From a virus, in IMG/VR virus record IMGVR_UViG_3300017917_000224, positions 1 to 29,411 of that record: a stretch of 29,411 nt of DNA, one strand, 5' to 3'. Numbering within the stretch: the stretch's first letter is position 1; each line of letters starts with the position of its first letter. Shown here in pieces: positions 1,158 to 23,000 of the stretch. A program made the translations under genes and the position numbers. Below the pieces are notes generated by a model. That model saw nothing but the letters and a program-made list of their open reading frames with translations, was not told the origin of the DNA and did not search any database.

Positions 1158-1386
1158 TATTTTTTCTACGCTCTTTTCTTGCTTCTAACTGCTGTTCTTT
1201 TTCAACAGCCCACTCGCGGATCGCAACTCTGCGCTTAGAACAAACGCGACGGATTTCCGATAATTTTTTACGCAGACGAATTGCAGACACTTTAGTACCT
1301 TCGTTGAGCCACTGTTGGTTAGCTTCAAAGTATTCTCGGAACACACGCAGTAACTCTGCATGTAGTTCTTCGTCCTGCGGCCGCAT
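1150..1386 (-). CDS. Small basic histone-H1-like (Hc1-like) protein
   Basis: The product has 78 residues, is rich in Arg, Lys and Glu, and is predicted almost wholly helical. The pattern of an aromatic helix, a WLNEGTKVSAIRLRKKL segment, then EIRRVCSKRR is reminiscent of the small Hc1/H1-like proteins annotated in several T4-like phages (typically FxxxGNKxAGxRxRKxLxELKK). Those are thought to bind nucleic acid, but the role in phages is not established. I prefer ATG at 1386, which overlaps the gp46 stop as TGATG. A GTG at 1389 directly before it is equally in frame and lies 8 bases from a GGAG, so the first residue is undecided. The C-terminal run of charged residues ends in RKERRKNNV. The gene certainly looks real (tight overlaps on both sides); the histone-like assignment is tentative. 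Confidence 0.55.
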   Translation of the reverse strand: MRPQDEELHAELLRVFREYFEANQQWLNEGTKVSAIRLRKKLSEIRRVCSKRRVAIREWAVEKEQQLEARKERRKNNV

Positions 1387-3164
1387 CACTCACTGATCTC
1401 CAAATCAGTTGCGTAGCTGGTAAATCCGTTTTCTTTGATTACCTTGAGCACGTTGTTAACACGACCTACTAGTTCGTCCTTGTGACTGATCAAGAATATA
1501 TTCTTGCTACGTTCTCGTGACATCTTTTTCAATACTGCTAGAGCATTTTCAACACCTGATGCGTCAAGGCCGTTGTCTACAAGTTCGTCAACAAACAATA
1601 AGTTAATATTCTGATACAAACTTTCCCACACATCACGGAAAGCCCAAGACAAACCAAGTATTAGTCTATTACGCTCGCCTCTACTAAGGTTATCAAAGTC
1701 TAGATCCTGTCCTAGCTGTGTGATCTCTACATTAAGATCGTTTTGGAATACTACAGTATGTGGTAGACCCATCTTGTCTAGATAGTAGGTCAAGCGATTG
1801 TTTAAGTATGCTAGATTTTGATCGATAATCTTTTTACGTATAAACGAATCCTTGCTGGTCAGTAGTTTAAGTAAAAACTCTTGGTGGTCTTTAAGACTGG
1901 TCAATTCGTTGACTTGATCCCAGGTAATCTCTTGCATGGCAGTATTCATCAGTTCTTCGATCTGTTCTTGATAGGGATCCTGCTCTCCTGCTCTAACGGT
2001 CAGTTGTGTTTCTAATGTTTTGAGATTGTTCTGATGTTTGAGTGCCTGCTCTAAGGTATCATAGTAAGTAGTCGGTTTATTACTTAACTCTCCAATGCTG
2101 GTTATTTCTGTCAGTATTTTATTCAAGTCGCCTTGGACCTTGTCCTGATACTTTTGAGCCTCTGATAAGTTTTGAGTAGCAGTAGCAGTCATTTCTTCAT
2201 GTTTGTGATCATGTAAGTCTTGTTCACAAGCATGGCATTTTTTGTTTGCCAGCGACTGCAACTCCGTTGCGTATTTTTTTACGCTTCGCTCTGCTTGCGC
2301 TGTCGCGCTTTCTAACGTAGCACGTTCCTTGTTTAGGCTTTTCAGCTTCGCCGACTTTTCTTCGAAAAGTTTTAGGTCGCTGTGCTTCGCAAGCTCAGCT
2401 TCAATATCTACATTTTCTAATTCAATTATAGCACGACCAATTTTTTCAACATCGTTGTCTCGCTGAGTGTTCCATGCTGTTTGTTTAGTAATCAGACTGT
2501 CGATGCTTTTTTGAATGCCTTCATTAGATTTTTTAGTTGCTTCAATTCTAGCTGACTCTTGTGTAATTTCGTCTTTAGTAGATCGAATAAGTTCTTTTAG
2601 TGTTTCTGCTTTCTCTGAAAGAATCGTTATACCTAATAACTGTTCGATAATAGCACGTTGTTCATTGGCCTTCATTGATAAGAACGGTTCGGTGTACGTG
2701 TTTAAAGCTACTATATGTTTGAACATATCGTGACTCATACCCAGCAGATCGTCTAGATCTTTCTGCGTTTCCCGCATATCTCCTTGGGCATCATCCGTTT
2801 CTTCAGTTTCTTGCTCTATATCGTTAACATAAAACTGTAGAATATTGGGTTTACGCCCACGCTCGATACGATACGATTGCCCGTCCTTTTCAAACGCCAA
2901 CGTAACTAACATGTTCTTATTGTTAATCTTGTTAATTAAATTGTCTTTCTTAATATTAGTAAGGGCGTTCCCAAATAACGCATAACTTAGGGCATTGACT
3001 ATGGTAGTTTTACCAGTACCGTTGCGTGATCCGCTGTCATCTCCGCCCATGTCTAAGTTTTCGCCTAAGACAAGAGTTAAGTTTTCTTTATCAAAATCAA
3101 CTGCTTGGGTTTGATTACCCACACTCATAAAGTTTTTTACTGTTAATTCTTTTATTCTAATCAT
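1386..3164 (-). CDS. 46: gp46-like recombination endonuclease subunit (Rad50/SbcC-type ATPase)
   Basis: The 592 residues (T4 gp46 has 560) show the full Rad50/SMC layout. Walker A is at residues 45-54 (GSRNGTGKTT). Long charged coiled-coil arms flank a zinc hook C310-H-A-C313. The ABC signature LSRGERNR is at 493-500, Walker B NLLFVDELVD is at 521-530 with Asp526/Glu527, and the switch histidine His561 lies in LISHKDE. Together with gp47 it forms the ATP-driven nuclease that resects DNA ends for recombination-dependent replication and helps degrade host DNA. Its start overlaps the gp47 stop as ATGA with no visible Shine-Dalgarno, so gp46 is probably translated by coupling, which would help keep subunit ratios fixed. 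The stretch coding for the coil around the hook has a different base composition from the rest of the gene (see findings). Confidence 0.97.
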   Translation of the reverse strand: MIRIKELTVKNFMSVGNQTQAVDFDKENLTLVLGENLDMGGDDSGSRNGTGKTTIVNALSYALFGNALTNIKKDNLINKINNKNMLVTLAFEKDGQSYRIERGRKPNILQFYVNDIEQETEETDDAQGDMRETQKDLDDLLGMSHDMFKHIVALNTYTEPFLSMKANEQRAIIEQLLGITILSEKAETLKELIRSTKDEITQESARIEATKKSNEGIQKSIDSLITKQTAWNTQRDNDVEKIGRAIIELENVDIEAELAKHSDLKLFEEKSAKLKSLNKERATLESATAQAERSVKKYATELQSLANKKCHACEQDLHDHKHEEMTATATQNLSEAQKYQDKVQGDLNKILTEITSIGELSNKPTTYYDTLEQALKHQNNLKTLETQLTVRAGEQDPYQEQIEELMNTAMQEITWDQVNELTSLKDHQEFLLKLLTSKDSFIRKKIIDQNLAYLNNRLTYYLDKMGLPHTVVFQNDLNVEITQLGQDLDFDNLSRGERNRLILGLSWAFRDVWESLYQNINLLFVDELVDNGLDASGVENALAVLKKMSRERSKNIFLISHKDELVGRVNNVLKVIKENGFTSYATDLEISE

Positions 3165-4174
3165 AGGTTATTGTAGATCGCTAGTAGCGTGTTTTTATTA
3201 TACGTGTCGCTTTCAATGTTTACAAGTTGACTGGACACAATCTGGTCGACTGATTCAAAAGATTGGATATCTATATTAGTATCAATTTCAACAGCTTTCT
3301 TTTCTGCAATCAAAGTTAATTCACGTATATCGTAATCGCCCATAAACTTTTCTTTGATAAAACTTGCTTCTTCATAGCTGATATCGATATCTAATGTTAC
3401 ACGTAAATGTTGCTTTGGTAGTATTAAACTGTCTGCTTCATCGATTAGTCTGCTTAGAGTTACAGTACGGAATGTCGGTTGTCCAGGCCAACTATAGTAT
3501 TCTGGTTGCCCACCCCACTCTAATATCATCATACCTCGTTCATCGTCCCATGCGTCAGCATAATTGTGCGGAAAAGCATTGCCGATATAGTGCATATTAC
3601 CTTTACTTTGGCGTTTGTGAAAATGACCACTAAACCCTAGATCGTAACCTTGGAATGCGTCTAACTGAATCTCACCGTGGTCTGGCATAGCAACCATAGC
3701 GTTCATGTAAAAGTGTGGCAGTTCAAAGTGACCAAAGATATACTTGGCTTTCTTTTTGCCTATTTGTTTCCACTCTTCCCCAACAAGCCACGGGCAAAGT
3801 GTAACGTCGCCTTCAGTCATCGGGTGGTGTACAACGGTAATACCGGGAATGTACTTTCCAAATTCAACAGAATGTATGTCGCGTTTATCTTTATAATAAA
3901 GATCATGGTTACCAGGAAAAAAGAAAAACTGATCAAAGGCACTACCCAGCTTTTCCAACGCTCTGAGGCTATAATCCATAGTAGTGATATTAAGGCTGTT
4001 GCGATTATGATGCCAATCTCCAAGAAATATTCCTGTATCACATCCTTCCTCCTTTGCTTTTGCGATGTACCAATCGACAAAATCTTCACAATCTTGATTA
4101 TGTACTCCGCTGTTAGATTTTAAACCAAAGTGTATGTCCGTAAAACACGCGGCTTTTTTAAAAAGATTACTCAT
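3161..4174 (-). CDS. 47: gp47-like recombination endonuclease subunit (Mre11/SbcD-type nuclease)
   Basis: The 337 residues (T4 gp47 has 339) contain every metallophosphoesterase block in order. DIH is at 13-15, GDWHHNR at 52-58, PGNHD at 87-91, GHFE at 148-151 and GHFH at 183-186. These residues bind two metal ions, usually manganese, for nuclease activity; the partner is the gp46 ATPase encoded next. I chose ATG at 4174 because AAGGA lies seven bases upstream; a GTG at 4177 directly before it is in frame but worse placed. The start overlaps the end of the gp55 gene by eight bases and the stop overlaps the gp46 start by four, so gp55, gp47 and gp46 are probably expressed as one unit. All catalytic motifs are intact. 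Confidence 0.97.
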   Translation of the reverse strand: MSNLFKKAACFTDIHFGLKSNSGVHNQDCEDFVDWYIAKAKEEGCDTGIFLGDWHHNRNSLNITTMDYSLRALEKLGSAFDQFFFFPGNHDLYYKDKRDIHSVEFGKYIPGITVVHHPMTEGDVTLCPWLVGEEWKQIGKKKAKYIFGHFELPHFYMNAMVAMPDHGEIQLDAFQGYDLGFSGHFHKRQSKGNMHYIGNAFPHNYADAWDDERGMMILEWGGQPEYYSWPGQPTFRTVTLSRLIDEADSLILPKQHLRVTLDIDISYEEASFIKEKFMGDYDIRELTLIAEKKAVEIDTNIDIQSFESVDQIVSSQLVNIESDTYNKNTLLAIYNNL

Positions 4175-5006
4175 CACTTGATCCTTCGCTGTGGCGTTTC
4201 ATTGCGGCTTCGTGTTCGCCCTGTCCTGTTCTAGAATAACTTGGGTTCATTCCGTTCATTTCTAAAATATCATCCCTAATATTTTGATTCCGCTTCTCAA
4301 TATTAATGACCCTAACAAATGAGTTTGTAACAGCGGCAGTAAAATAAGCAAAAGGATTATCAGACTTACTCTCATCAAATTGCAGTCCTATTTGTGTTAA
4401 CTGTAAAATAGCTTGCCCCTTCATTTCGTCGTTATAAGTGTAACCTCTAACGTTTCCACGAGTAGCATATCTTTCACACAGCTTGATCATCATCCGTGCA
4501 AGATTGTTTGTTATTTGCCCTGCATCCTTATCAAAGTGTCCTTTGATCAAATCGCCCTTCCAATGGCTCTTGCCAACACATATTAGCTGGTCATTATCGT
4601 CAAACTTCCAATGTTGGAATGGCGGAAAGTTAACTTTATCGTGTTTGTCTGCTGTACTTTTAGGATTTTTCTTTCTGCCAACGTTTGTAGGAATATGATC
4701 AAATGTCATGATTCTAAAAATTAAATCTGTTTTGGAAATCTTTTTATAATCAACTTCGCAATCTGCTAGTTTGATCTTTTCACCAGCGGCTTTGCGTTTA
4801 GCATATTCTTCGTCGCCTTGCCTTTTAGCCCTATTACGCTTGGCTTCTGCTATAGTTCTAATGTTAATTTTTTCAATATTGGGTAAAATAATATCGTATT
4901 GATGGTACTTTGGGTCGGTAAAACTACAGTAAGAACTTTTTGATTTGTGTATTTCCGACAACATATCCTTGTTGTTTAGGTAGTTAACTTTCGGTTGTAA
5001 TGTCAT
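4167..5006 (-). CDS. 55: gp55-like sigma factor for late transcription
   Basis: The protein is 279 residues long against 185 in T4. Its N-terminus (QPKVNYLNNKDMLSEI) aligns with T4 gp55 PKYNYVNNKELLQAI from memory. The sigma-region-2-like core occupies residues about 165-245, with GYTYNDEM, FDESKSDNPFAYFT and NIEKRNQ matching the T4 order. In T4, gp55 replaces sigma70 on host RNA polymerase and directs it to TATAAATA late promoters. Between N-terminus and core there is an extra segment of roughly 110 residues, first strongly basic (about 51-80), then with a GKSHWKGDLIKG stretch that I associate with gp55 of other marine T4-like phages. The acidic/polar C-terminus lacks an obvious hydrophobic SLDFLYE-like tail, which in T4 binds the sliding clamp. 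A GGAG in CCGGAGA precedes the start. It is the first gene of the leftward operon and faces the late genes it should activate. Confidence 0.93.
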   Translation of the reverse strand: MTLQPKVNYLNNKDMLSEIHKSKSSYCSFTDPKYHQYDIILPNIEKINIRTIAEAKRNRAKRQGDEEYAKRKAAGEKIKLADCEVDYKKISKTDLIFRIMTFDHIPTNVGRKKNPKSTADKHDKVNFPPFQHWKFDDNDQLICVGKSHWKGDLIKGHFDKDAGQITNNLARMMIKLCERYATRGNVRGYTYNDEMKGQAILQLTQIGLQFDESKSDNPFAYFTAAVTNSFVRVINIEKRNQNIRDDILEMNGMNPSYSRTGQGEHEAAMKRHSEGSSDE

Positions 5007-5023: not shown

Positions 5024-5054
5024 ATTGTACAATTATAAACTACGCAGTTTATAA
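5024..5054. promoter_or_regulatory. Two dyad symmetries on the early promoter, candidate operator
   Basis: A perfect inverted repeat with 9-base arms (TTATAAACT at 5033-5041, AGTTTATAA at 5046-5054) and a 4-base centre fills nearly the whole spacer of the minus promoter and touches its -10. Next to it, a 10-base palindrome ATTGTACAAT (5024-5033) covers the end of the -10 and the predicted start site. Both symmetries are seen directly. That a dimeric repressor or other regulator binds them is inferred. Part of the symmetry may simply reflect the TATAAT/TTTATA composition. Confidence 0.45.
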
Positions 5055-5060
5055 AGTCAA
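5032..5060 (-). promoter_or_regulatory. Sigma70-type early promoter for the gp55-47-46 operon
   Basis: Read on the minus strand there is TTGACT (5060-5055), a spacer of exactly 17 bases, then TATAAT (5037-5032). The -10 hexamer is a perfect consensus and the -35 matches five of six. Transcription would start near 5025 and give a short leader carrying CCGGAGA before the gp55 ATG at 5006. This fits host-polymerase transcription of early or middle genes. It is the only strong promoter I recognise for the whole leftward gene block. Confidence 0.78.
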
Positions 5061-5067
5061 ATAAATA
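5060..5067 (+). promoter_or_regulatory. T4-type late promoter for the baseplate operon
   Basis: AATAAATA followed by CTTTA differs by one base from the T4 late consensus TATAAATA, the sequence read by gp55-loaded RNA polymerase. It lies 23 bases before the ATG at 5091, which has GGGGA seven bases upstream. It abuts the -35 hexamer of the leftward promoter, so the two promoters can hardly be occupied at once. TACGCAG starts 20 bases upstream of ATAAATA, as at the gp6 late promoter. Confidence 0.75.
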
Positions 5068-5090
5068 CTTTACCAAATGGGGAAATAGAT

Positions 5091-6095
5091 ATGGCAGTTA
5101 CTAGAGGACAAAGTTTTAATTCAAAAATCGCATCAACATCGGCAACGTTCGGTGCTGCCGCAAATGCAGTAGGAACTGCTAGTAGATTAAGTGCCGCTAT
5201 TAGCACAGGGTACCAAACTGGCGGTGTAGTTAGTGCTATACGAGCAGTTAACCTTCCAGCCGCAGGCGAAGCAATCGGTGACATTACTAGTGCTATAGCA
5301 TCCTTCGGCGGTGATGCAAATGCAAATGATTGGCGTGTCAGACTAAGTCTCCCAACGTGGACTAGTTTTAGAAATAGTCCTGTGCTTAAACCGCTCAAAG
5401 AATCAGGCGGCTTGATATTTCCCTATACGCCACAAATTTCTGTAAGGTCTTCTGCAAAGTACGGCCAAGATCAGATAGTTCATTCTAATTTTACATTCCA
5501 GTCTTTTAGGAATAGTGATCCTGGATCTATTGAAATTACAGCACCAATGAACGTTGAAGATAGTTCTCAAGCATTATATTGGATTGCGGCAGTTCATTAT
5601 TTACGTAGTGCGTCCAAAATGTTTAGCGGAAATGATCCAAAGGCAGGAAATCCTCCTCCGGTAGTGTTGTTGAATGGCTACGGTAATTATGTGTTCAAGA
5701 ATGTTCCGGTGGTTATTACCTCATTTAATTTACAGTTACCACAAGATTCAGATTATATCTCAACCGATGTTGTTGGTTCAGCCGCCGGCGCAGTAGCAGG
5801 TGTAGCAGACAGCATTGGCGGCCTTGCAGATACATTAGGAGAAACATTAGGTGGAGGCATTCCAGGAATAACTAGTACAATTAGTAATATTGCAGGCGGA
5901 GTTAGCCAAGTAGCAGGTCTGTTAGGCGCCTTTGGTATCGGAGGATCAACTAGCGGTGGCCGAGCTTATGTACCAGCAAAGAGTCAATTTACAATTAGCC
6001 TAATGCCAATGTACAGTCGTTCGAGTGCTCGTAAATTTAGCCTTGACAGATTTGTTACTGGCGGATATTTAAACGGCGGATTCGGATACATTTAA
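5091..6095 (+). CDS. Baseplate/tail-tube cap or initiator-like virion protein (gp48/gp54 position)
   Basis: This is the first gene of the late operon, 334 residues. Residues 1-75 are Ala/Ser/Thr/Gly-rich and probably flexible. A folded part begins at DWRVRLSLPTW (about 80-90), continues through GLIFPYTPQISV and HSNFTFQSF, and includes a helix ALYWIAAVHYLRSASKMF followed by GNPPPVVLLNGYG. A Gly/Ala-rich segment (about 225-285) precedes a C-terminal beta part ending in FVTGGYLNGGFGYI. I recognise this arrangement from T4-like marine phages, where such proteins are annotated as virion structural or as the gp48/gp54 tube cap and initiator. In T4 those proteins share the tube fold and seed tail-tube assembly on the hub. 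Placement next to gp53 and the hub proteins supports that role, but whether it equals gp48 or gp54 cannot be decided here. The gp53 gene follows after one base. Confidence 0.65.
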   Translation: MAVTRGQSFNSKIASTSATFGAAANAVGTASRLSAAISTGYQTGGVVSAIRAVNLPAAGEAIGDITSAIASFGGDANANDWRVRLSLPTWTSFRNSPVLKPLKESGGLIFPYTPQISVRSSAKYGQDQIVHSNFTFQSFRNSDPGSIEITAPMNVEDSSQALYWIAAVHYLRSASKMFSGNDPKAGNPPPVVLLNGYGNYVFKNVPVVITSFNLQLPQDSDYISTDVVGSAAGAVAGVADSIGGLADTLGETLGGGIPGITSTISNIAGGVSQVAGLLGAFGIGGSTSGGRAYVPAKSQFTISLMPMYSRSSARKFSLDRFVTGGYLNGGFGYI

Positions 6096-10074: not shown

Positions 10075-10518
10075 ATGGGAACAAATGCAAATTTATACGA
10101 TAAGGTAATTTTAAAACCTAACATTAGAAATGAATTAATTACTCCTAAGACTTATAAAGGTTTTAGCACAGTTAGTACTGATACAGAAAATTTTTCTTTA
10201 TATGATTTTCAACTGATACAACAAGATATATTAAATCATTTTTATACACGGCAAGGCGAACGCTTGATGAATCCTACATTCGGCACAATTATATGGGACT
10301 TATTGTTTGAACCTCTTACAGAAGAACTAAAAGATCTAATAGTTCAAAATGTCAACGAAATTGTAAACTACGATCCTCGGGTCAGGGCAGAAAATCCTAT
10401 CATTACACAATACGAATCTGGAATACAGATCGAATGTGTGCTTACCTATTTGCCGTACAACATCAGCCAAGCGATGCAACTACGATTTGATCAAGCCAAC
10501 GGATTACTTGTAGGATAA
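10075..10518 (+). CDS. 25: gp25-like baseplate wedge protein
   Basis: The 147 residues (T4 gp25 has 132) match the gp25/IraD-like family. A variable N-terminus is followed by NFSLYDFQLIQQDILNHFYTRQGERLMNPTFG, in separate blocks, and the FEPLTEELKD segment that holds the conserved Glu-Pro motif. Then come VNYDPRV and a C-terminal strand pair. In T4 and in type VI secretion (TssE), this protein lies at the core of the wedge and nucleates the sheath. It is encoded between the central spike gp5 and gp6, its direct partner in the (gp6)2-gp7 wedge core. All family landmarks are present and the start is set by a consensus ribosome site. Confidence 0.95.
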   Translation: MGTNANLYDKVILKPNIRNELITPKTYKGFSTVSTDTENFSLYDFQLIQQDILNHFYTRQGERLMNPTFGTIIWDLLFEPLTEELKDLIVQNVNEIVNYDPRVRAENPIITQYESGIQIECVLTYLPYNISQAMQLRFDQANGLLVG

Positions 10519-10540
10519 TATACGCAGATAATTTTTATCG

Positions 10541-10547
10541 ATAAATA
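10541..10547 (+). promoter_or_regulatory. T4-type late promoter in front of gp6
   Basis: ATAAATA preceded by G and followed by TTG lies in the only real gap of the structural operon (10519-10565). TACGCAG begins exactly 20 bases upstream (10521). A 12-base palindrome TTTATCGATAAA (10534-10545) overlaps it. It would give gp6 and the giant gene their own late transcript. The predicted start lies about ten bases before the gp6 ATG. Confidence 0.7.
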
Positions 10548-10565: not shown

Positions 10566-13500
10566 ATGAGTGTAACTACTAGACAAAACAGATTATTAAT
10601 TGCGGAAGATTGGAAAAAGATATATCAAAGTTTCCGCAACGCAGATTTCCAAAGCTACGACTTTGAAAATTTACGTCGCACAATGATCGATTATATCCGT
10701 CAAAACTATCCAGAAGACTACAACGATTACATTGAATCCAGCGAATACCTTGCCCTAATTGACCTTATTGCGTTCTTGGGCCAAAGCATAGCTTTCCGTG
10801 TCGATTTAAATGCTCGTGACAACTTCCTAGAATTAGCAGAGCGTAGAGAGAGTGTTCTAAGACTTGCAAGAATGCTTAGTTATAATCCTAAGAGAAATAT
10901 AGCGGCAACAGGTCTTTTAAAATTCACATCAGTAACAACAACAGAGAATGTCATCGATAGTAACGGACGAAATCTGTCCGGACAAATTATTACATGGAAT
11001 GATCCTAGCAACTCTAATTGGTACGACCAGTTTATAAAAGTAATAAATGCCGGATTCTCTAAGACACAACAATTTGGGAATCCGTCGGACAAGGCTACAA
11101 TTTACGGCATACCTACAGAACAGTATCGCTTCCAGAGCTTGGGAGAATCTGCACCAGTTTTTGGTTTTACAAAAACCGTTGCCGGCCGACCTATGTCTTT
11201 TGAAGTAGTAAGCACATCCTTTAGCGGACAGAGCTACATATATGAAGAACAGCCAAAATTAGGCAATAAGATCAGCTGTATATATAGAGACGATGGTCGC
11301 GGCCCAAGTTCTTCTAGTTCTGGTTTCTTTATGAAATTTGTTCAAGGCGAATTAAACACTGGAACGTTTACTATATCACAGCCTGGTACTAATGAATCTA
11401 TTGACATTGATGCACAAAATATTAATAATACCGACGTATGGTTATACAAGTTAGATAAAGATGGCAACGAAGATGTCTTGTGGACACCTGTTAGTAATTT
11501 CGAAGCAAACAACATTATCTATAACAGCGTCAATAAAAGTATTAGATCGATTTACTCTGTGATTACTAGAAATAACGATGCCGTAAGTTTACAGTTTAGT
11601 GATGGTACTTTTGGAGATCTTCCACTGGGAACATTCCGTGTTTATTACAGAATAAGCAACGCATTGGAATATACAATCAATACACAAGATATTCGTAATA
11701 TCAGTATATCATTTCCTTATATATCAAACACTGGACAGCAAGAGACTTTATCAGTCACGATGAACTTGGCCTCGAGTGTAAGTAATGCAACAGCAGCCGA
11801 AACTAACGAAGACATTAAGGCAAATGCTCCTGCTACTTACTATACACAGAATAGAATGATTACAGGGGAAGATTATAACATAACTCCTTTATCGTCTAGC
11901 TCTCAAATAGCTAAAGTTAAAGCAGTTAACAGAACTAGTTCGGGTATAAGTCGATATTTTGATTTATCAGATCCTACAGGAAAGTACAGTTCGACTATTT
12001 TATTTGCGAACGACGGGGTCGTTTATCGAGAAGAATTTAAATCTTCAAGTCGGTTTTCTTATCAAAACAAAACAGATATTGAGGGAATAATCTATAATCA
12101 AATATTTGATATTCTTAAAGATCCTAATCTTAAAAATTTTTACTACGCTAATTTTATTGTGTTTATTACTTCAAGTCTTGATATTATTTGGAATAATATA
12201 ACATCTGATAGTAACTTATCTACTGGTTATGTTAGTTCCGGAGATACAATATTTAAAGTCGGAACATTTACTTCTAACGATTTAAAATATTTAAGATCGG
12301 GGTGTTTAATAAAGTTCTCTGCTCCTGAAGGAAAATACTTTGATACAAAAAATTCTAATCGACTAGTTACGGGATCAGCTACAGTTGCTGGCGCCGAGAC
12401 AGTCTTATGGGCTGAAGCTATAACAGTTGAAGATGACGGCACCGCTGCCGGCACAGGTGTAAACTCTGACGGTTTTGGTCCTATAACATTAAACAGAATA
12501 ATTCCTCAAGGGTCGATTATTACACAAATAATTCCAAGGTGGAGAACAGTCATTGAGACTTCAACGATTGCAACAATGGTTGATTTGATTTTTTCAAATA
12601 AGCCATTTGGTCTAAGATATGATTCAGAAAACCAGCAATGGAAAATTGTCTTTGAGTTAAATCTTGATGCACGAAATAATTTTAGTTTAGGTAAGCAAGG
12701 CGACCAAACAAATCAAAGACAAGATGCTAGCTGGTTATTGTTGTTTACTACAGATAACGAGTATTATACAGTTACAGCTCGAATTCAAAGATATGTATTT
12801 GAAAGCGATAAGGAAATCAGATTCTATTTTGATTCCAGCAACAAAGTCTACGACAGTAAAAATAATGCAGTTATAAAAGATACAATTAAATTCCTTAGTG
12901 TTAATACTCAGCCGGAAAACACACTAGCATTTACTAATGATAAGGTCTGGGACATTGTTAGCGAATACATCGGATTAGATGGGTACGTAGATACTAAAAA
13001 AATTATTATAGCATTCGGAGATTCAGATGATAATGGTGTAGTAGATAATCCAGAAATGTTTAATGAATTAGTCATACCTGCATCTGGAAATATCTCTTTA
13101 CAAAACAAATATATTGTTTTAGAAAAATATATTATTAGTGCCGGACAAGAAGATTATCAATATGTTGATAACTCCTCTGGCCTAGTAACTATTTTAGGAA
13201 CAAAGCCTACTAGTTATTCAGTCTCTGATAACGGAAAATATTTTTATTTTGTAGACACAAATACAGTTTGTAAATTAGATGTAACTCTTTCAAATCCGTG
13301 GATCCCGACATTGGATTATAAAATTTATATCGGAAGAGACAATCTTAAATTTCAATATAATCATAATGCTGATTACGAATCAAGAATTGATCCGGGCGTA
13401 AGCAATATTATTGATATTTTTGTGTTAACCAAGTCGTACGATACTAGATTTAGACAGTGGATTAATGGATCTATAGTTAATAAACCACTTCCTCCTAGTT

Positions 13501-14030
13501 CTTTAGAATTATATGATTTAGTTTCTTCAAACTTAAATCTTGTTAAAGCTATTAGCGATGAGATTATTTTTCATCCGGTGAGTTATAAAGTCTTATTCGG
13601 ATCTTCTGCTACTGAGGATGTCCAGGCTAGTTTTAAAGTTATTAAAAATCCTAATCGTGTTGTGTCTGATAACGATATTAAAACTAGAGTAATCACTGCT
13701 ATCGAAGAATTCTTTACATTAGAAAATTGGGATTTTGGAGATACATTTTATTTTACAGAACTTTCAACCTACGTAATGAGTCAACTAAGCCCTGACATTT
13801 CTAGTTTTGTTATAGTACCTAGATTGGGTGGTTTAGGGTTTGGAAGTTTGTTCGAAATTAAATCTGCAAGCGATCAATTGTTTGTCAATGGTGCGACTGT
13901 TGACGATATTGAGATAATACAAGGTATAACTGCTACATCAATTAAATCGATTTCAGGCACTACTGTAGATTCAACAGTGTCAGAACAGCAAAATGTAACA
14001 AGTTCGAATTACGGAGCAAATAATGGCTGA
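10566..14030 (+). CDS. 6: gp6-like baseplate wedge protein, enlarged
   Basis: I start this gene at ATG 10566, with AGGA six bases upstream. An in-frame TTG at 10548 would lie inside the promoter region. The 1154 residues are far more than the 660 of T4 gp6. The N-terminal helical domain (about 8-110) has EDWKKIYQSF, FQSYDFENLRRTMIDYIR, YLALIDLIAFLGQSIAFR and LARMLSYNPKRN, typical of gp6 and of the J-like baseplate family. The C-terminal region (about 930-1130) has RIDPGVSNIIDIFVLT, IIFHPVSYKVLFG, NWDFGDTFYFTEL and GATVDDIEII, also family hallmarks. Between them lie beta-rich insertions, including an EF-hand-like loop at residues 819-830. In T4, gp6 forms the ring that joins wedges. The stop overlaps the next gene by eight bases. 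Confidence 0.92.
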   Translation: MSVTTRQNRLLIAEDWKKIYQSFRNADFQSYDFENLRRTMIDYIRQNYPEDYNDYIESSEYLALIDLIAFLGQSIAFRVDLNARDNFLELAERRESVLRLARMLSYNPKRNIAATGLLKFTSVTTTENVIDSNGRNLSGQIITWNDPSNSNWYDQFIKVINAGFSKTQQFGNPSDKATIYGIPTEQYRFQSLGESAPVFGFTKTVAGRPMSFEVVSTSFSGQSYIYEEQPKLGNKISCIYRDDGRGPSSSSSGFFMKFVQGELNTGTFTISQPGTNESIDIDAQNINNTDVWLYKLDKDGNEDVLWTPVSNFEANNIIYNSVNKSIRSIYSVITRNNDAVSLQFSDGTFGDLPLGTFRVYYRISNALEYTINTQDIRNISISFPYISNTGQQETLSVTMNLASSVSNATAAETNEDIKANAPATYYTQNRMITGEDYNITPLSSSSQIAKVKAVNRTSSGISRYFDLSDPTGKYSSTILFANDGVVYREEFKSSSRFSYQNKTDIEGIIYNQIFDILKDPNLKNFYYANFIVFITSSLDIIWNNITSDSNLSTGYVSSGDTIFKVGTFTSNDLKYLRSGCLIKFSAPEGKYFDTKNSNRLVTGSATVAGAETVLWAEAITVEDDGTAAGTGVNSDGFGPITLNRIIPQGSIITQIIPRWRTVIETSTIATMVDLIFSNKPFGLRYDSENQQWKIVFELNLDARNNFSLGKQGDQTNQRQDASWLLLFTTDNEYYTVTARIQRYVFESDKEIRFYFDSSNKVYDSKNNAVIKDTIKFLSVNTQPENTLAFTNDKVWDIVSEYIGLDGYVDTKKIIIAFGDSDDNGVVDNPEMFNELVIPASGNISLQNKYIVLEKYIISAGQEDYQYVDNSSGLVTILGTKPTSYSVSDNGKYFYFVDTNTVCKLDVTLSNPWIPTLDYKIYIGRDNLKFQYNHNADYESRIDPGVSNIIDIFVLTKSYDTRFRQWINGSIVNKPLPPSSLELYDLVSSNLNLVKAISDEIIFHPVSYKVLFGSSATEDVQASFKVIKNPNRVVSDNDIKTRVITAIEEFFTLENWDFGDTFYFTELSTYVMSQLSPDISSFVIVPRLGGLGFGSLFEIKSASDQLFVNGATVDDIEIIQGITATSIKSISGTTVDSTVSEQQNVTSSNYGANNG
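13020..13055 (+). other. EF-hand-like calcium loop within gp6 (residues 819-830)
   Basis: The 12-residue stretch DSDDNGVVDNPE has acidic or amide residues at EF positions 1, 3, 5, 9 and 12 and the invariant Gly at position 6. It is the canonical calcium loop pattern, also seen in dockerin and thrombospondin-type repeats. It sits between beta-rich segments of the wedge protein. Calcium binding is inferred from the residues only. Confidence 0.6.
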
Positions 14031-17000
14031 GAGTAAGAAAATAAAAAACTTAAAAACAACAGCAACTGATTTATTACCTCGTTATTTTAAAACAGATGCT
14101 AATAAAAAGTTTTTACAAGCCACTATAGATCAGTTAATACAACCGGGTACTGTTAAAAAAGTAAACGGTTATATCGGTCGCCAAAATGCAAAATCAGCCG
14201 TCGGCTCTGATATTTTTATTACTGCTTCGACAAAAGATAGACAAGATTACCAATTAGAACCAGCTCTTACAATTAAAGACTCTATCGGTAATAATGTATT
14301 TTTCAAAGATTATCAAGACTATATTAACCAATTGTCTGTATTCGGATCAAACACAAAAAATCATAATAGATTAAATCGCCAAGAATTTTATTCTTGGAAT
14401 CCGCATATCGACTGGGATAAATTTGTTAACTTTCAAAATTATTACTGGTTACCATATGGCCCAGATACTGTAAGAATATTTGGCCAACAAGAAAATATTA
14501 TAAGTTCATATAAAGTAGATTTACAATCCGAAACTGATAATAATGTTTACGTGTTCAGCCCAGACGGTGCTACACAAAATCCTACTTTAAAATTGTTTAG
14601 AGGACAAACTTATAGATTTGAAATTAACAGTCCAGGAAATCCATTTAGTATTAAGACTGCAAGATCTCCCGAATCGTTTGATCGATATATTAATCCTGGT
14701 GTAACTGGATATGCTGTAGAAAATGGCGTAATTGAAATTACTTTACCATATAATAGTCCGGATATTCTTTATTATGTGAGTGAAACAGATATCGATCTCG
14801 GCGGAGTTTTTCAAGTAGAATCTATCGAGGAAAATACAGTTTTAGATATTTCGACAGATATTTTAGGAAAGAAAGAATACGTATTATCAGACGGAACAAA
14901 ATTAAGCAATGGAATGAAAGTTTCATTTGTGGGCAATGTCAGTCCTGCTGAGTATTCTGTTGGACAATATTATGTAGAAGGTGTTGGTAGGTCTATCCGT
15001 CTTGTAAACGAAAAAGTTTTAGAACTAATTAGTACCTATACTAATCAACAATCTGTACCGTTTGATTCCGGAAAATTTGACAGCCAGCCTTGGGACGATG
15101 CTATTTCATTCGCTGGAAAATCCGATTACATTGTTGTTAACCGTGCTAGTACCGATAGGAATCCTTGGAGTCGATATAATCGTTGGTTCCATAAAGATGT
15201 CATTGAGAAAAGTGCAACTTATAACAATAAAGTAGCTTCTATAGATCAATCAGCTAGAGCAACTAGACCTATTATCGAGTTCGAACCAAATATTAAACTT
15301 TATAATTTTGGAACTAGAGCCCTCGGCGATGTAGATGTGATTGACGATTATACTGTTGATGTTTTTTCTATGGTAGAAGGCCAGCTAGGATATAACGTTG
15401 ACGGAATTCAACTAGCTCAAGGTCAGCGTGTGTTGTTTACTGCTGATACCGACAGACTAGTTAGGAACAGAATTTATAAGGTTGATTTTTTATTACTCGA
15501 TGGCGTACGAAAAATACATTTAGTAGAGCAAGAGCTACCAGTTACAAACGATCTAGTATTGATCCGCCAGGGGAATAAGAATAAAGGACAGATGTATTGG
15601 TATGATGGAGATCAATGGAATCTAGGTCAGCAAAAAACCTCAGTAAATCAATCTCCTATGTTCGATGTATTTGACGAAACTGGACATAGCTTTGGAGATA
15701 AAACTGTTTATGACGGATCGACATTTAAGGGAACTAAACTCTTTTCTTATAAGCAAGGAACAGGTGCTAACGACGCAACTTTAGGATTTCCATTGTCTTA
15801 TAAAAACATAACCAATATTGGGGATATTGTTTTTAATTTTAATTTAGCAACTGATAAGTTTCAATACAAAGATATAGTTGATATCAAAGATAAACAAATT
15901 AAAGTAGGTTATCTTTTTAATTATGAAGATACTGACGCTGGATATATTAACGGTTGGACTACAGCCCGTACATTTGATGTACAACCAGCAGTAAGAATTT
16001 ATAAAAATTCTAACAAATTTAATAATTTTAATATCGATATTTTTGATGATATCGATAGTTTAGGCGATCTTCGAGTTAAGGTATTTGTTAACGGATTGTT
16101 TGTACAACCTGCCGACTATACAATCTCAACGAGTGGTCGATATAAAACAATTATTTTAAATAATGACATTCTAGATTCAGACGTTTTAACAATCAAATGT
16201 TATTCTAACCAACCTATTAATGAAAATGGTTATTACGAAGTTCCTATAAATTTACAAAATAATCCATCTAATAACGATATAGGAGATTTTACTCTTGGAG
16301 AAGTTATTGATCATGTTGGATCTATTGTAGAAAATTTAGAAAATTTCGAAGGGCAGTTTCCAGGACCAAATAATCTAAGAGATTTAGGCGGTGTTTCTGA
16401 TCTCGGAACTAAGTTTGTTCAACACAGCGGCCCGATGAGCTTGGTCTTGTATCATGTAACATCCGATACAAATAACATTATCAGAGCCATTGAATCGTCT
16501 AGAGAAGACTATAATAAATTTAAAAGAAATTTTGTTTCAGTAGCAGAAAATCTTGGGATTGATACTGACCCGGTAGAGTTAGTAAATCTAATTTTACAAG
16601 AAATTAACAAAGATAAACCAAAGTCAAGTCCTTACTATTTTAGTGATATGATCCCATACGCTGGCGGAATCAAAACTGAACTAACAGTAATTGACTATAG
16701 AATAAAAACATATCCTTTAACAAATAATTTTAATTTAGATACATTATCAAATAAGGCAGTTATCGTTTATCTTAATGACAACCAACTACTGTATGAAAAA
16801 GATTATACATTTAGTGATCAGGGATTTGTTGTTATTTCTGCAGAATTGCAAAACGATGATAAAGTTACAATATGGGAATTTGAAAATACTAATGGATGCT
16901 GTGTTCCACCAACACCAACTAAGTTAGGTATTTGGCCAAAATATGAACCTAAAAAGATTTATGATACCACGTTGGTAAATCCACGGTGGATGATACAGGG

Positions 17001-20000
17001 CCACGACGGTAGCTTAATATTGGCCTACAATGATTACAGAGACGATTTAATATTAGAATTAGAAAAGAGAATTTTTAATAATATTAAAATTAAGTACGAT
17101 TCTAACATATTTGATGTACAAGATTTAATTCCGTCTTTTAATAAGAGTAATAGATATTCGCTGTCTGAATTTAATGAAGTCCTCTCAATAAGTTTTTACC
17201 AGTGGTCGGGACTTGTTAGTAAAGATTTTACTAAACCGCTTGGTTATTCTAGAGATAATAGTCTTACTTTTAACTATAAAGAATTACCGGCATTAGACGG
17301 TTCTTCGCCTCTTCCGGGATACTGGAGAGGTGTCTATCAGTGGATGCTAGGAACAGATAGGCCGAACCTTTGTCCTTGGGAAATGTTAGGTTTTTCTATA
17401 GAGCCAAGTTGGTGGCAAGAAGTATATGGTCCTGCTCCATATACTAGCGACAATTTAATAATGTGGGAAGACATAGCCGATGGGCTAGTAAAGCAACCTA
17501 ATTCACCAACGGTGTATTTAGAAAAATACAAGAGGCCATATCTAAAAGGAAGAATACCGGTAGATCAAGATGGAAATATTATTAGTCCATTAGATTCTGG
17601 TTTAGCTCTAGGACCGATCACAACTAGCACAGCTAACGATTTTGTATTCGGAGACCAAAGTCCTGTTGAGACTGCTTGGCGAAGAAGTAGTTATTATCCG
17701 TTCAGTGTAATGGTTGCATCAATGTTGTTGCAGCCAGCAACTACCTTAGGAACTCTTTTAGATAGGTCAAGAATTGTTAGAAATTTAGCAGGGCAGTTGA
17801 TTTATAAAGATACTGGAGTTAGAATTACAGCCAGCGACATTGTATTGCCTAGCATCTATTCTAGCACTTCTAATATTAAATCTTCTGGAATTATTAATTA
17901 CATTGTAGATTATATCCTTAGTGACAATTTAAGATCTTATACTGAGTATCAATATAATTTAAAAAATATTCAAGCTAAACTATCGTACAGAATAGGATCT
18001 TTTAGCAGTAAAGAAAAATTTAAGTTATTGTTAGATAGTAAAACACCTTTAAGTCAAAGTAGTGTATTTGTTCCTCAAGAAGATTATGAGATTATTCTAA
18101 ATTCGTCTAGTCCTATCAAGAAGATATCATATAGCGGAGTAGTTATTACGAAGGGTGCTGACGGTTTTTCAGTAAAAGGTTACAGTAAAACTCAACCATA
18201 CTTTAAATATTATCCAGCTACTAATCTTGGTTTACTAATAAACATCGGCGGCATATCTGAGGGATTTGTTGAATGGACTTCTCAGTCAACATATTCTTCT
18301 GGTAAAGTAATATTTTACAATAATAGATATTACAGGTCAAAAGTTTTACATACAACATCAGATACATTTGATTCTAAATATTATCAATTACTACCGTCTC
18401 TTCCTCTAATTGGTGGTCGAGATGCCTATATACGAACAGAATGGGATAGGACCGAGGAAATCGTAGTTCCATACGGAACTAGATTTAGAACAATTCAAGA
18501 AGTTGTTGATTTCCTTTTAGGATACGGCGAATATTTGAAAGATCAAGGATTTATTTTTGATGACTTTAATGCAGAATTAAATGCTATAACTAATTGGGAA
18601 ACTAGTGCTAAAGAATTTTTATTCTGGACTACACAAAACTGGAGCACCGGCGAAGACCAATGGGACGACTGGAAGCCAAATGAATTTGTACCTGTAGGTA
18701 GTGTTGTAAAGTACGCCGGCGATTATTATAAATCAGTAGTTACATCGGATCCTTCAGAAGTTTTTCAAGAAGATAACTTTGTTAAACTTGACGGACTAAG
18801 TGACATTGGAAGTGCTGTAATAAGCCTAAGTCCAGCCGCAATTAAATTAACTTTCGAAGCACCGTTAAGTGTAGTTGACGACATTCGTAATTCTTTTAAT
18901 GGTTACGAAATATTTAAAGTTGACGGAACACCGATACAACCTAATTTTTTAAATAATTATAGAGAAGATAATGCAGTAAGTTATACACCAACTGAAGACG
19001 GTATATATGGTGCAACTTTTTATCTCGTGCAAAAAGAACAAGTTGTTATTCTTAATAATTCAACTTTGTTCAACGATACAATTTATAATCCTGAAAGCGG
19101 ATATAGACAAGAAAAAATTAAAGTATCCGGGTATGTTAGTAGCGAATGGAACGGATCGTTCAACATTCCAGGATTTATCTTCGATCAAGCGAAGATCGAT
19201 GATTGGGAGTCATGGAAAGATTATGCGCTAGGCGACATTGTAAAATATAAGCAATTTTATTATTCTGCTTCTCGATTTATTCCTGGAGAGGAGTCGTTTG
19301 ATAATAACAAGTGGATTAAGTTAGATCAAAAACCTACTCCGCGATTATTACCTAACTGGACATATAAAGCCGAGCAGTTTACAGATTTTTATAGTTTAGA
19401 TAGCGACAATTTTGACGGAGATCAGCAGGCAGTAGCACAACATTTAGTTGGATATCAAAAGCGTCAATATCTAAGTAATATTATTAAAGACGACGTTAGC
19501 GAATTTAAATTTTATCAAGGAATGATAGTTGAAAAAGGAACACAAAATGTTCTTAACAAACTATTTGATGTTCTGAGCGCCGATGATAAAGAAAGCGTTG
19601 ATTTTTATGAAGAATGGGCATTACGTACCGGGCAGTACGGTGCAAGCCAGGCATTTGAAAACATCGAATTTATAATTGATGAATCTGATGTAAAAAATAA
19701 TCCGCAAGGATACGAGCTAGTTAATCAAATTGACACATCATTGGTTGACTTTATAGTAAGACAGACTCCTAATGAAGTGTATCTTAAGCCAGTAGGATAC
19801 AGCAATAGTCCGTGGCCTGTTGCAGAAGATAAGCCGTCATTTTTAAGAACACCGGGATATGTAAGACCTAGCGATGTTAAGTATTCATTTGTGTCGCTCG
19901 ATCAAGTAATTAATACTGATATTACTGATTATGTTGAAGGTGATTATGTTTGGGTCGGATTTGAAGGCAGAGAATGGAATGTATATAGATACAGTCGACT

Positions 20001-23000
20001 AGAACAAACAGTTATCGATGCTGCCTATTCTACTAATGACAAGTTATTAACATTGGTCTTAGACAAGAACACTTCAGTACGCATAGGTGATATCATCGGA
20101 ATAGATCAAGTATCTACCTTTCCAGGATTTTATAAAGTTGTTGATATAGACTTAAAGAAAATTATTTTATCAGCACCGTCTATTACTAATTTTAGAACAC
20201 CGTTTACTGAACAAAATAAGATAGTAGTTTCAACATTTTATTCTTATAGGGTAAAAAATGTTGTTAATGATAACGGGTCAATTGACTATGCTATAGATAG
20301 GGCAGACCAAGTACTAAAGACTGCACCAAACAACGGTGAACTACTTTGGATTGACGACAACGGAAATAATAAATGGATGACATGGCAGTATAATCCAATT
20401 TACTCTTTAGATGAAATTATTAATACTGCTCCGCAAGAAGGTCTTTCATACGGAAGAAGAATTGTATTAAATCCTGGCGCTAATATTACTGCTATTTCTA
20501 ATGACCTTGGCGAAGTAATTATATATGATAAAGCCGGACCAGTTGCACCGTGGCTACAAAGACAAACAATAACTGTTCCATTTATATCTAAGAATACTGG
20601 TTTCGATGATAATGCTACGCCTGCGAGTTTAACCGGTGATGTTATAGCTATCTCCGGAGACAGTAGGTGGTTAGCAACTGGAACACCGTTGGCAAATAAT
20701 GTGTCTTCTAGATTGAAATATGTAGGAGGTTCTCCTCTGTGGTCTTCAGTGACAAGCTATGCTGTAGGCGATATAGTAATTTATAATTCTAAACCTTACC
20801 AAGCACAGTTTATTGTTGGCCTTCCTGCAAATTTAAATAAGAATCCAGAAACTCAAACAAATTTCTGGAAGGAAATTTCTTATATTCCAGTTGGTGAAGA
20901 TTCTTTATCAACAAACTCTAATTTAACAAAACAAGGTGTTGTTTCGATATACGAAAAAGATGCGAATAATATCTTTACGTTAGTTGCTACGATTGTTAGC
21001 CCGCATCCGTTGAATAATGAAAAATTTGGATCAAGTCTTGCATTCGGTAGCGATACTTTATTAGTCGGTTCCGAAGGATTCCAGAACGACACAGGTAAAG
21101 TTTATAGATTAACCTATAAGACAACTATCGAAGCCACTACAAACTATAACCCAGTTGGTAGTTCTGGACAGACATTAGTTGTGTCAAGTACTGCAAATAT
21201 ACGAGCAGGTATGCATGTGCTAGGAAATGGTTTCACTACACAATATGTAGCACAGGTAGTTAATTCTACAACATTAATATTAAATGCTCCCCCTGATTCA
21301 GATCCAAGTACAATATTATCATTTACTGTAACCGGTTGGAGATACGATACTAGTATAGTAGTCGGCGAGCCATTGCAGTCTGGAAGTAGGTTTGGTACAT
21401 CTACTATAGTAAGTAAAGATAATTCAACGCTTTTAGTTTCTGCACCAGGCGGCGTCTATGATAATAATAGTGAAAATTTATCAGTCGAAGGTGACGAATT
21501 AATTAAGATACCCGGAAAAGTTTTCGTCTATAAGTTAGCTTCTGGGCAATATTCTCTTTATACTGTTCTAACTAACGGATCACCAGATTACGGTACTTCA
21601 ATTACAGTTTCTAACACTGGGCAATATATTGCAGTTTCTTCTATTTTTGATGATAAAGAAACGATAGATCAAGGAACAGTTATTGTCTACAAGGACAACG
21701 GCACTGGTTATTCTCAATATCAGGAGTTATACAATCTTGATCCCGAAACTGCTGAATTCTTCGGCTCAAAAATATCTTTTATGAATGATTATGATACATT
21801 AGTTGTTTATAGCGAAGGTTCAGACACTAAAACAACAATGACGATCGATTTAGGATCAACAACATTTGATAATAACTTGACAAAAATTGTTGATGTCGCT
21901 GAGGATAGCGGTCGAATCGATGTATATGACAGGTATGGTAGCAAATGGATATTCAGTGAGAGCCTAGTAAATGGACAAGATATTTCTACAGGATATAGTA
22001 CAGGTTTAGCTGTAGGATCTGACGTTATCTTAGTCGGAGCACCATATGCCCTTGACCAAGGACTTAGCTCTGGTAGAGTACACGAATATAGAAAACCAAT
22101 AGGGAAATTTAGTTGGTCAGTCTTGCATCAAGAAACAGATAGAATTGATTTATCAAAGATTAAACGAGCATTCTTATACGATCGAAACACTAATAAATTA
22201 GTATCTTATCTTGATGTCATTGATTCTACACAAGGCAGAATTCCAGGCCTTGCTGACCAAGAAATTAGATATAAAACTTTTTACGATCCTGCAATTTATT
22301 CAGTTGGAAACTCTACAGTAAAAATTGACGAAGGAATGGCTTGGGGTAAAGCACAAGTAGGAACTCTCTGGTGGGATTTAAGAACTGCTAAATTTTACGA
22401 CAGTCAAGATAATGATCTAGTATATAGGAATAGTACTTGGAATACATTGTTCCCGGGAGCAAGCGTTGATATCTACGAATGGGTAGAAACAACATTAACA
22501 CCTTCTCAGTGGAATAGCAGAGCAGATACAGACGAAGGGCTAATAACAGGTGTTAGCGGCACTACTCTTTATGGTAACGATGTTTATGGTTTAATTAAAA
22601 AATATGATTCTGTCGCTAAAACATTTAAGAACACTTATTATTATTGGGTTAAGAATAAGAAAACTATTCCAAATGTTAACTTTAGAAAAATCCCTGCTAA
22701 TGATGTAGCAGAATTAATTTCTAACCCTAGGGGGTATGGTTACAAATATCTTGCATTAACAAGTCCTAATTCGTTTAGTCTTGTTAACGTTAAGCCTTTG
22801 CTTCAGGATTCAAATATTGTTTTATCCGTTGAATACTGGACCGGGAATTACGATAATAAAAACATTCATAACGAATGGAAAATTATTAGTAACAATCCAA
22901 ATTCTTCGATTCCTCGTTTCATTGAAAACAAATGGTTTGACAGTTTATGCGGTAAAGACGAGGCAGGTCGACTAGTCCCAGATACTACACTACCTCCAAA

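What the first reader, a model, noticed from the sequence alone, without database searches (positions are those of the whole stretch)
5024..5067. Compact early/late switch: gp55 promoter back-to-back with the late promoter gp55 should activate
The minus strand holds TTGACT-N17-TATAAT, and the plus strand holds AATAAATA directly abutting its -35. The early promoter drives gp55; gp55-loaded polymerase would then bind the late promoter and probably block or compete with the early one. This gives a built-in feedback switch in about 45 bases. Hexamers and spacing are seen; the feedback is inferred.
Basis: partly seen in the sequence, partly recalled or inferred. Interest (0 to 1): 0.75.

Follow-up and report, generated by a model that had tools for sequence, protein, structure and literature searches.

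The report
Sigma-gene promoter nested in late promoter
In a large family of uncultured T4-related phages, the promoter that makes the late-gene switch protein (gp55) is interleaved, on the opposite DNA strand, with a late promoter that gp55 should turn on, and that late promoter carries a second conserved control sequence that T4 late promoters lack; this suggests, but does not prove, a built-in switch.

Summary
In detail: minus-strand TTGACT-17-TATAAT (5060-5032) faces gp55 (4167-5006), and plus-strand AATAAATA (5060-5067) overlaps its -35 by one base. It is not chance: all 87 distinct sites from close relatives keep TATTTA[G/T]TTG without any spacing change, while distances to both genes vary. 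gp55 faces away from the same baseplate operon in most cultured jumbo relatives examined (PA5oct, RaK2, 121Q, XaC1, Hallingskeid, Vibrio 2.275.O), but not in T4-like cyanophages.

The conserved 17-bp "spacer" changed the picture. It is not an early-promoter feature but mostly an 18-bp upstream element (UE, 5035-5052) exactly 8-9 bp before TAAATA. The same UE-gap-TAAATA occurs at gp6 (window 10515-10547), tail tube and one other gene, where no sigma70 promoter was found. A scan of 2.9 million viral contigs gave at least 119 stretches with 8-9 bp spacing against one with 12-13 bp.

So the gp55 promoter is nested inside a bipartite late promoter. Mutual exclusion, hence gp55 shut-off, is plausible but inferred; "early" (versus middle) is untested. 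T4 late promoters show no conservation at -35, so the UE is the novel part.

The parts
4167..5006 (-). gp55, late-transcription sigma factor (279 aa)
   Evidence: phrog_12791 E=1.2e-74; PDB 7d7c_F gp55 E=9.9e-7, with profile E=1.4e-9; predicted fold best PDB match 7d7c_F, Foldseek probability 1.00 but E=0.02
5032..5037 (-). -10 hexamer TATAAT of the gp55 promoter
   Evidence: TATAAT in 78 of 87 relatives
5055..5060 (-). -35 hexamer TTGACT of the gp55 promoter
   Evidence: TTG 87/87, TTGAC 84/87
5035..5052 (+). upstream element (UE) ATAAACTACGCAGTTTAT of the late promoter, imperfect dyad, 9 bp before TAAATA; overlaps the gp55 -10
   Evidence: same element at the same 8-9 bp spacing at other late promoters
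5053..5061 (+). 9-bp gap between UE and TAAATA, holding the gp55 -35 hexamer on the other strand
   Evidence: GTCAA in the gap at 84/87 gp55 sites, 0/62 gp6 sites
5060..5067 (+). late box AATAAATA (core TAAATA 5062-5067)
   Evidence: TAAATA core 87/87; its motif is concentrated in intergenic DNA of sibling genomes
5091..6095 (+). first gene of the late baseplate operon (virion structural protein, phrog_12050)
   Evidence: synteny with 121Q
10515..10532 (+). second UE in the window (ATAATATACGCAGATAAT)
   Evidence: UE best match at gap 8-9 upstream of nearly all gp6 homologues read
10540..10547 (+). second late box GATAAATA (core 10542-10547), no sigma70 partner
10566..14030 (+). gp6-like baseplate wedge gene controlled by the second bipartite promoter
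   Evidence: phrog_10646 E=4.4e-301
3161..4177 (-). gp47/SbcD-like gene downstream of gp55
   Evidence: phrog_100 E=1.4e-69
1386..3164 (-). gp46/SbcC-like gene downstream of gp55
   Evidence: phrog_77 E=4.1e-108

Best explanation
The 5030-5070 region is a nested divergent promoter pair. On the minus strand host RNA polymerase with a sigma70-type factor would make gp55 (start near 5025). On the plus strand gp55-loaded polymerase would use a bipartite late promoter (UE 5035-5052, 9-bp gap, TAAATA 5062-5067; start near 5073) to make the baseplate operon. The gp55 -35 lies in the late promoter's gap and its -10 overlaps the UE, so an initiation complex, or a UE-binding protein, on one strand should exclude the other. 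Once gp55 is abundant, late complexes on this site would damp gp55 synthesis while opening the baseplate operon: an auto-limiting early-or-middle to late switch. Shown by sequence: the elements, their conservation, their fixed interleaving, the recurrence of UE+TAAATA at other tail genes without sigma70 hexamers. Inferred: promoter activity, start sites, gp55 specificity, a UE-binding factor, mutual exclusion and feedback.
For: 87/87 conservation and invariant junction while box-to-structural-gene distance mostly varies 16-25 bp and -10-to-gp55 distance mostly 17-26 bp; fourfold-site baseline. Late motif intergenic: ATAAATAT 13 of 13 in the sibling genome, GATAAATA 10 of 12 in another. UE: model trained only on gp55 sites finds other late promoters at gap 8-9 (26 of 29 hits with gap 0-30); 65 of 65 distinct gp6 upstreams carry TAAATA and 59 score positive for UE at gap 8-9. 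Natural control: sigma70 hexamers of 10 or more of 12 at 86/87 gp55 sites and 2/62 gp6 sites. Collection scan: at least 119 stretches at gap 8-9, 1 at gap 12-13, 3 in the bacterial/archaeal genome collection; 80 of 84 sites read lie before the same four tail-related genes. Divergent gp55/baseplate order in cultured jumbo phages, each with TATTTA between the genes.
Against: No transcript data. In the PA5oct-like clade the -35 lies 43 bp from the late box in 25 of 27, so tight overlap is not universal; in the 121Q/RaK2 group the late box is kept but no UE was found. gp33 and gp45 homologues, the T4 partners of gp55, were not detected, but that search is uninformative because its controls also failed. 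Clade members share ancestry, so 87 sites are not 87 independent events.
Confidence: 0.55

Rival explanations
1. Compact divergent promoters with no regulatory coupling: an early/middle unit and a late unit begin back to back, and the overlap merely saves space. Each promoter obeys its own factors.
For: Divergent order is old and occurs with differing spacings, so coupling is not required everywhere; the intergenic region is only 84 bp.
Against: In the window clade the late box and -35 share no spare base in any of 87 sites, and the -10 is built into the UE; an uncoupled pair could drift apart, as the flanks did. A fixed late-box to -35 distance is also seen in 25 of 27 PA5-like sites. Two elements already touching have little room for indels, so this is suggestive only.
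Confidence: 0.3
2. The UE is the operator of a phage or host regulator (dimer) that primarily represses or times these tail promoters, and at the gp55 locus also represses gp55. gp55-RNAP competition is secondary.
For: Imperfect dyad: conserved columns are symmetric; fixed position (about -38 to -21 of the late start); only about three to four sites per genome, all before tail genes; the UE overlaps the gp55 -10.
Against: No candidate binding protein identified; a repressor need not sit at a fixed 8-9 bp from the box, which favours contact with the polymerase complex.
Confidence: 0.3
3. TATTTA next to the -35 is only an A+T-rich (UP-like) extension of the sigma70 promoter and not a late promoter.
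For: It abuts the -35 in this clade and is A+T-rich.
Against: The same box with UE sits before gp6 without sigma70 hexamers; in PA5-like phages it is invariant (27/27) although 43 bp from the -35; it lies mostly 16-25 bp before the structural gene start.
Confidence: 0.03

Closest known systems
T4 late promoters and gp55 (PMC2988020; structures 7d7c, 7d7d)
   Same: TATAAATA-type box, with A in place of T at -13 (as in AATAAATA here) at nine T4 sites; gp55-family sigma factor; late structural genes.
   Different: The T4 review states there is no sequence conservation at the -35 position; here a conserved 18-bp element sits there at a subset of late promoters. gp55 is 279 aa with about 125 extra residues between the T4-like N-terminal motif and the sigma-2-like region; T4-like cyanophage and Moby gp55 genes are co-directional with the uvsW helicase gene, not divergent.
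Phage CBB/GAP32 (Asteriusvirus/RaK2-type jumbo phages; PMC5259590)
   Same: gp55-like sigma downstream of a sigma70-like promoter; ATAAATA before structural genes; related phages 121Q and RaK2 have the same divergent gp55/baseplate order with TATTTA between.
   Different: gp55 promoter has a TGAAACG -35; no UE found; the paper section read does not discuss the overlap of the two promoters.
phi29 early A2b/A2c and late A3 promoters (PMC3100819)
   Same: Early and late promoters side by side, early proteins repress the early promoters while activating the late one through sites overlapping the early -35.
   Different: phi29 uses p4/p6, not a phage sigma factor; here the binding factor is unknown and the promoters are interleaved.
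T4 middle promoters (MotA box near -30; from general knowledge, not tested)
   Same: A sequence element near -30 read by a phage activator.
   Different: Different sequence, and here it is paired with a late box instead of a sigma70 -10.

Membership tests
T4 gp55-family sigma factor | Sequence/fold similarity to gp55 domain 2 | tested here: met
T4 gp55-family sigma factor | C-terminal sliding-clamp-binding epitope | not tested
   C-terminus ends ...RHSEGSSDE; epitope not compared; clamp homologue search uninformative
T4-type late promoter | TATAAATA-like box about one helical turn before the start, upstream of late genes | tested here: met
   Box and gene context; transcript start itself not testable here
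T4-type late promoter | No conserved sequence in the -35 region | tested here: not met
   UE at fixed 8-9 bp spacing; so a variant of the T4 type, not a plain member
sigma70-type promoter | TTGACA/TATAAT-like hexamers 16-18 bp apart, conserved | tested here: met
sigma70-type promoter | Transcription start about 7 bp after the -10 | not testable with these tools
   needs 5' end mapping
phi29-type early/late switch | Reciprocal regulation of adjacent early and late promoters by phage proteins | not testable with these tools
   only the overlap is shown

The most novel reading that the evidence does not exclude
These jumbo phages have a second class of gp55-dependent late promoter that needs a sequence-specific factor at -38 to -21 (the UE), dedicated to the baseplate/tail genes, perhaps doing the work of gp33/gp45; the gp55 promoter is embedded in one of them so that activating the tail regulon shuts off the sigma factor.
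Probability: 0.4. Interest if true: 0.75.

Novelty: new variant of a known kind. Interest (0 to 1): 0.62.

Why it matters
T4 late promoters are the textbook case of a minimal promoter with nothing conserved at -35. A conserved, precisely spaced element there, limited to a few tail genes, implies an additional late regulator and a sub-programme within late transcription in a widespread phage group. Its overlap with the promoter of the late sigma factor gives a concrete, testable feedback design. How jumbo relatives such as CBB, in which gp33 and gp45 homologues were not detected (PMC5259590), control late genes is an open question that this makes testable. Relative 121Q, an E. coli phage, has the same gp55/baseplate order and can serve as a laboratory comparison without the UE.

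Tried and rejected
1) Spacer element as a general early-promoter motif: searched 12 sibling records; the full promoter-plus-spacer pattern has its strong hits only at gp55 (an earlier pattern was off by one base and is discarded). 2) Spacer as an operator belonging to the sigma70 promoter: rejected because the element keeps its position relative to the late box, not the sigma70 hexamers, in PA5-like phages, Phosso, Atu_ph07 and L141/L142 and recurs at gp6 without a sigma70 promoter. 3) UP-element reading of TATTTA: rejected. 4) Strict palindrome by covariation: only one column pair clearly covaries (20/29, P 0.001 by shuffling), so dyad symmetry is supported mainly by symmetric conservation. 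5) gp33 and gp45 searches by Pfam: no hit, but controls also empty, so nothing concluded. 6) UE in 121Q: none found. 7) Suspicion of a recoded genome in the PA5-like clade: false alarm, the gene after the UE there is a short gp25-like gene. 8) The 12-13 bp spacing control hit, L526, also has a TAAATA at 8 bp, so it is not a real counter-example.

Full report
OBSERVATION. The two motifs are present as described, with the small correction that AATAAATA (5060-5067) shares base 5060 with the -35 hexamer (5055-5060). The sigma70 match alone would mean little, as 72 such sites were found against 73 in shuffles. The late motif is different: WATAAATA occurs once in the window against 11.9 expected, and TAAATA 18 times against 57.

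GENES. The minus-strand gene is a gp55-family late sigma factor (phrog_12791 E=1.2e-74; T4 gp55 7d7c_F E=9.9e-7 by sequence). Its AlphaFold model (mean pLDDT 81) has 7d7c_F as best PDB match with probability 1.00 but E=0.02, aligned over 88 columns. gp47- and gp46-like genes follow it. The plus-strand genes are a baseplate operon: structural protein, gp53-like, structural, gp5-like, gp25-like, gp6-like and a 4905-aa structural protein. The same order is found in E. coli phage 121Q.

CONSERVATION. Eighty IMG/VR loci with a close gp55 were read first; more were added from three further queries, one from a fourth. In the window clade 87 distinct sites all keep TATTTA[G/T]TTG; TATAAT is kept in 78 and the rest are single changes. 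The junction between late box and -35 never changes length, while the distance from late box to structural gene is mostly 16-25 bp and from -10 to gp55 mostly 17-26 bp. At 42 fourfold-degenerate gp55 sites the mean information content is 0.46 bit and the maximum 1.10, so shared ancestry alone does not account for columns near 2 bits.

DEPTH. Cultured relatives with 37-48% gp55 identity, PA5oct, Hallingskeid, 121Q, RaK2, XaC1 and Vibrio phage 2.275.O, have gp55 divergent from the same structural operon; Atu_ph07 and Phosso have a cytidyltransferase or adenylyltransferase gene in between. All eight have TATTTA between the divergent genes. Cyanophages S-PM2 and S-SM1, pelagiphage HTVC008M and Stenotrophomonas phage Moby instead have gp55 co-directional with a uvsW-type helicase gene. 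The divergent arrangement is therefore a feature of the jumbo lineage. Overlap of the two promoters varies: tight in the window clade and Atu_ph07, close in the 121Q/RaK2 group, separated by about 35 bp more in the PA5-like clade.

THE UPSTREAM ELEMENT. The 17 bp between -35 and -10 were far too conserved for a sigma70 spacer, and the whole pattern had strong hits only at gp55 in 12 sibling records. In the PA5-like clade a similar element, ATAAA-N8-TTTAT, lies at the same distance from the late box although the sigma70 promoter has moved. A weight matrix trained only on gp55 sites was then scanned over nine sibling records. It found other late promoters with the element exactly 8 or 9 bp before TAAATA: 26 of 29 hits in the range 0-30 bp. 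The genes are gp6, a tail-tube-like protein and a phrog_11259 protein. For 65 distinct gp6 upstream regions fetched independently, all have TAAATA and 59 have a positive UE score at 8-9 bp. In the PA5-like genomes the second site lies before the gp25-like gene, again at 8 bp.

A NATURAL CONTROL. gp6 sites and gp55 sites share UE and TAAATA, but GTCAA in the gap is found at 84 of 87 gp55 sites and 0 of 62 gp6 sites, ATT before the UE at 78 of 87 and 0 of 62, and sigma70 scores of 10 or more at 86 of 87 and 2 of 62. Two separable constraints are therefore superimposed at gp55: a bipartite late promoter and a sigma70 promoter on the other strand.

COLLECTION SCAN. In 257 billion bases of bacterial and archaeal genomes it gave three, in unrelated species. 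Of 84 viral sites read, 39 precede gp6, 38 the gp55-adjacent gene, 2 the tail tube gene and 1 the phrog_11259 gene; 2 were too close to a contig end and 2 were unassigned.

MECHANISM. If the late box occupies -13 to -6 as in T4 (PMC2988020), the late start is near 5073 and the UE lies at -38 to -21. The gp55 start is near 5025. RNA polymerase footprints known from E. coli and T4 (general knowledge) would overlap over most of 5035-5080, so simultaneous initiation complexes are unlikely. gp55 made from its sigma70 promoter would then, with the late machinery, occupy the site and reduce its own synthesis. This last step is inference. The UE is at the place where T4 late promoters have no conservation, and near where the MotA box sits in T4 middle promoters (general knowledge), so an activator contacting polymerase is the simplest reading; a repressor is the main alternative. 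No binding protein was identified. The fold of the extra gp55 N-terminal region (residues about 25-150, confidently modelled) has no convincing PDB match and is one untested candidate, weakened by the presence of that region in 121Q-type phages that lack a detected UE.

LITERATURE. The CBB paper reports ATAAATA before structural genes, a gp55 gene behind a TGAAACG/TATA promoter class and no gp33 or gp45 homologues (PMC5259590). The phi29 A2b/A2c/A3 region is the nearest described regulatory analogue (PMC3100819). A search for 'late promoter', 'upstream element' and 'gp55' together found no phage paper; only open-licence papers were searched, so priority is not established.

Noticed in passing
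L089:4197-5224 and homologues in L273, L283, L289, L294 and others: The tail-tube-like gene has its late box only 4-5 bp before the ATG, so a T4-like start point would give a leaderless mRNA; this is seen in several sibling genomes.
   Followed up: no
window 14023-28740: A single open frame of 4905 aa (phrog_10938, virion structural), half of the window.
   Followed up: no
window 4167-5006 (gp55 residues about 25-150): gp55 carries about 125 extra residues compared with T4 gp55, modelled with high confidence and without a convincing PDB match; present in all jumbo relatives aligned.
   Followed up: partly
L084-L087 (sibling genome G002), e.g. G002 116269-116297 and 109382-109411: Sigma70-type promoters in which a TAAATA late box lies on the same strand in the spacer or overlaps the -10, suggesting tandem overlapping early/late promoters elsewhere in these genomes.
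   Followed up: no
L092:2026-2051 (G001 62026-62051): Two late boxes face away from each other about 20 bp apart between a baseplate-hub gene and a 668-aa gene.
   Followed up: no
window, whole: TAAATA is depleted about threefold over the window (18 against 57 expected), as if spurious late starts inside genes were selected against; codon usage was not controlled for.
   Followed up: partly
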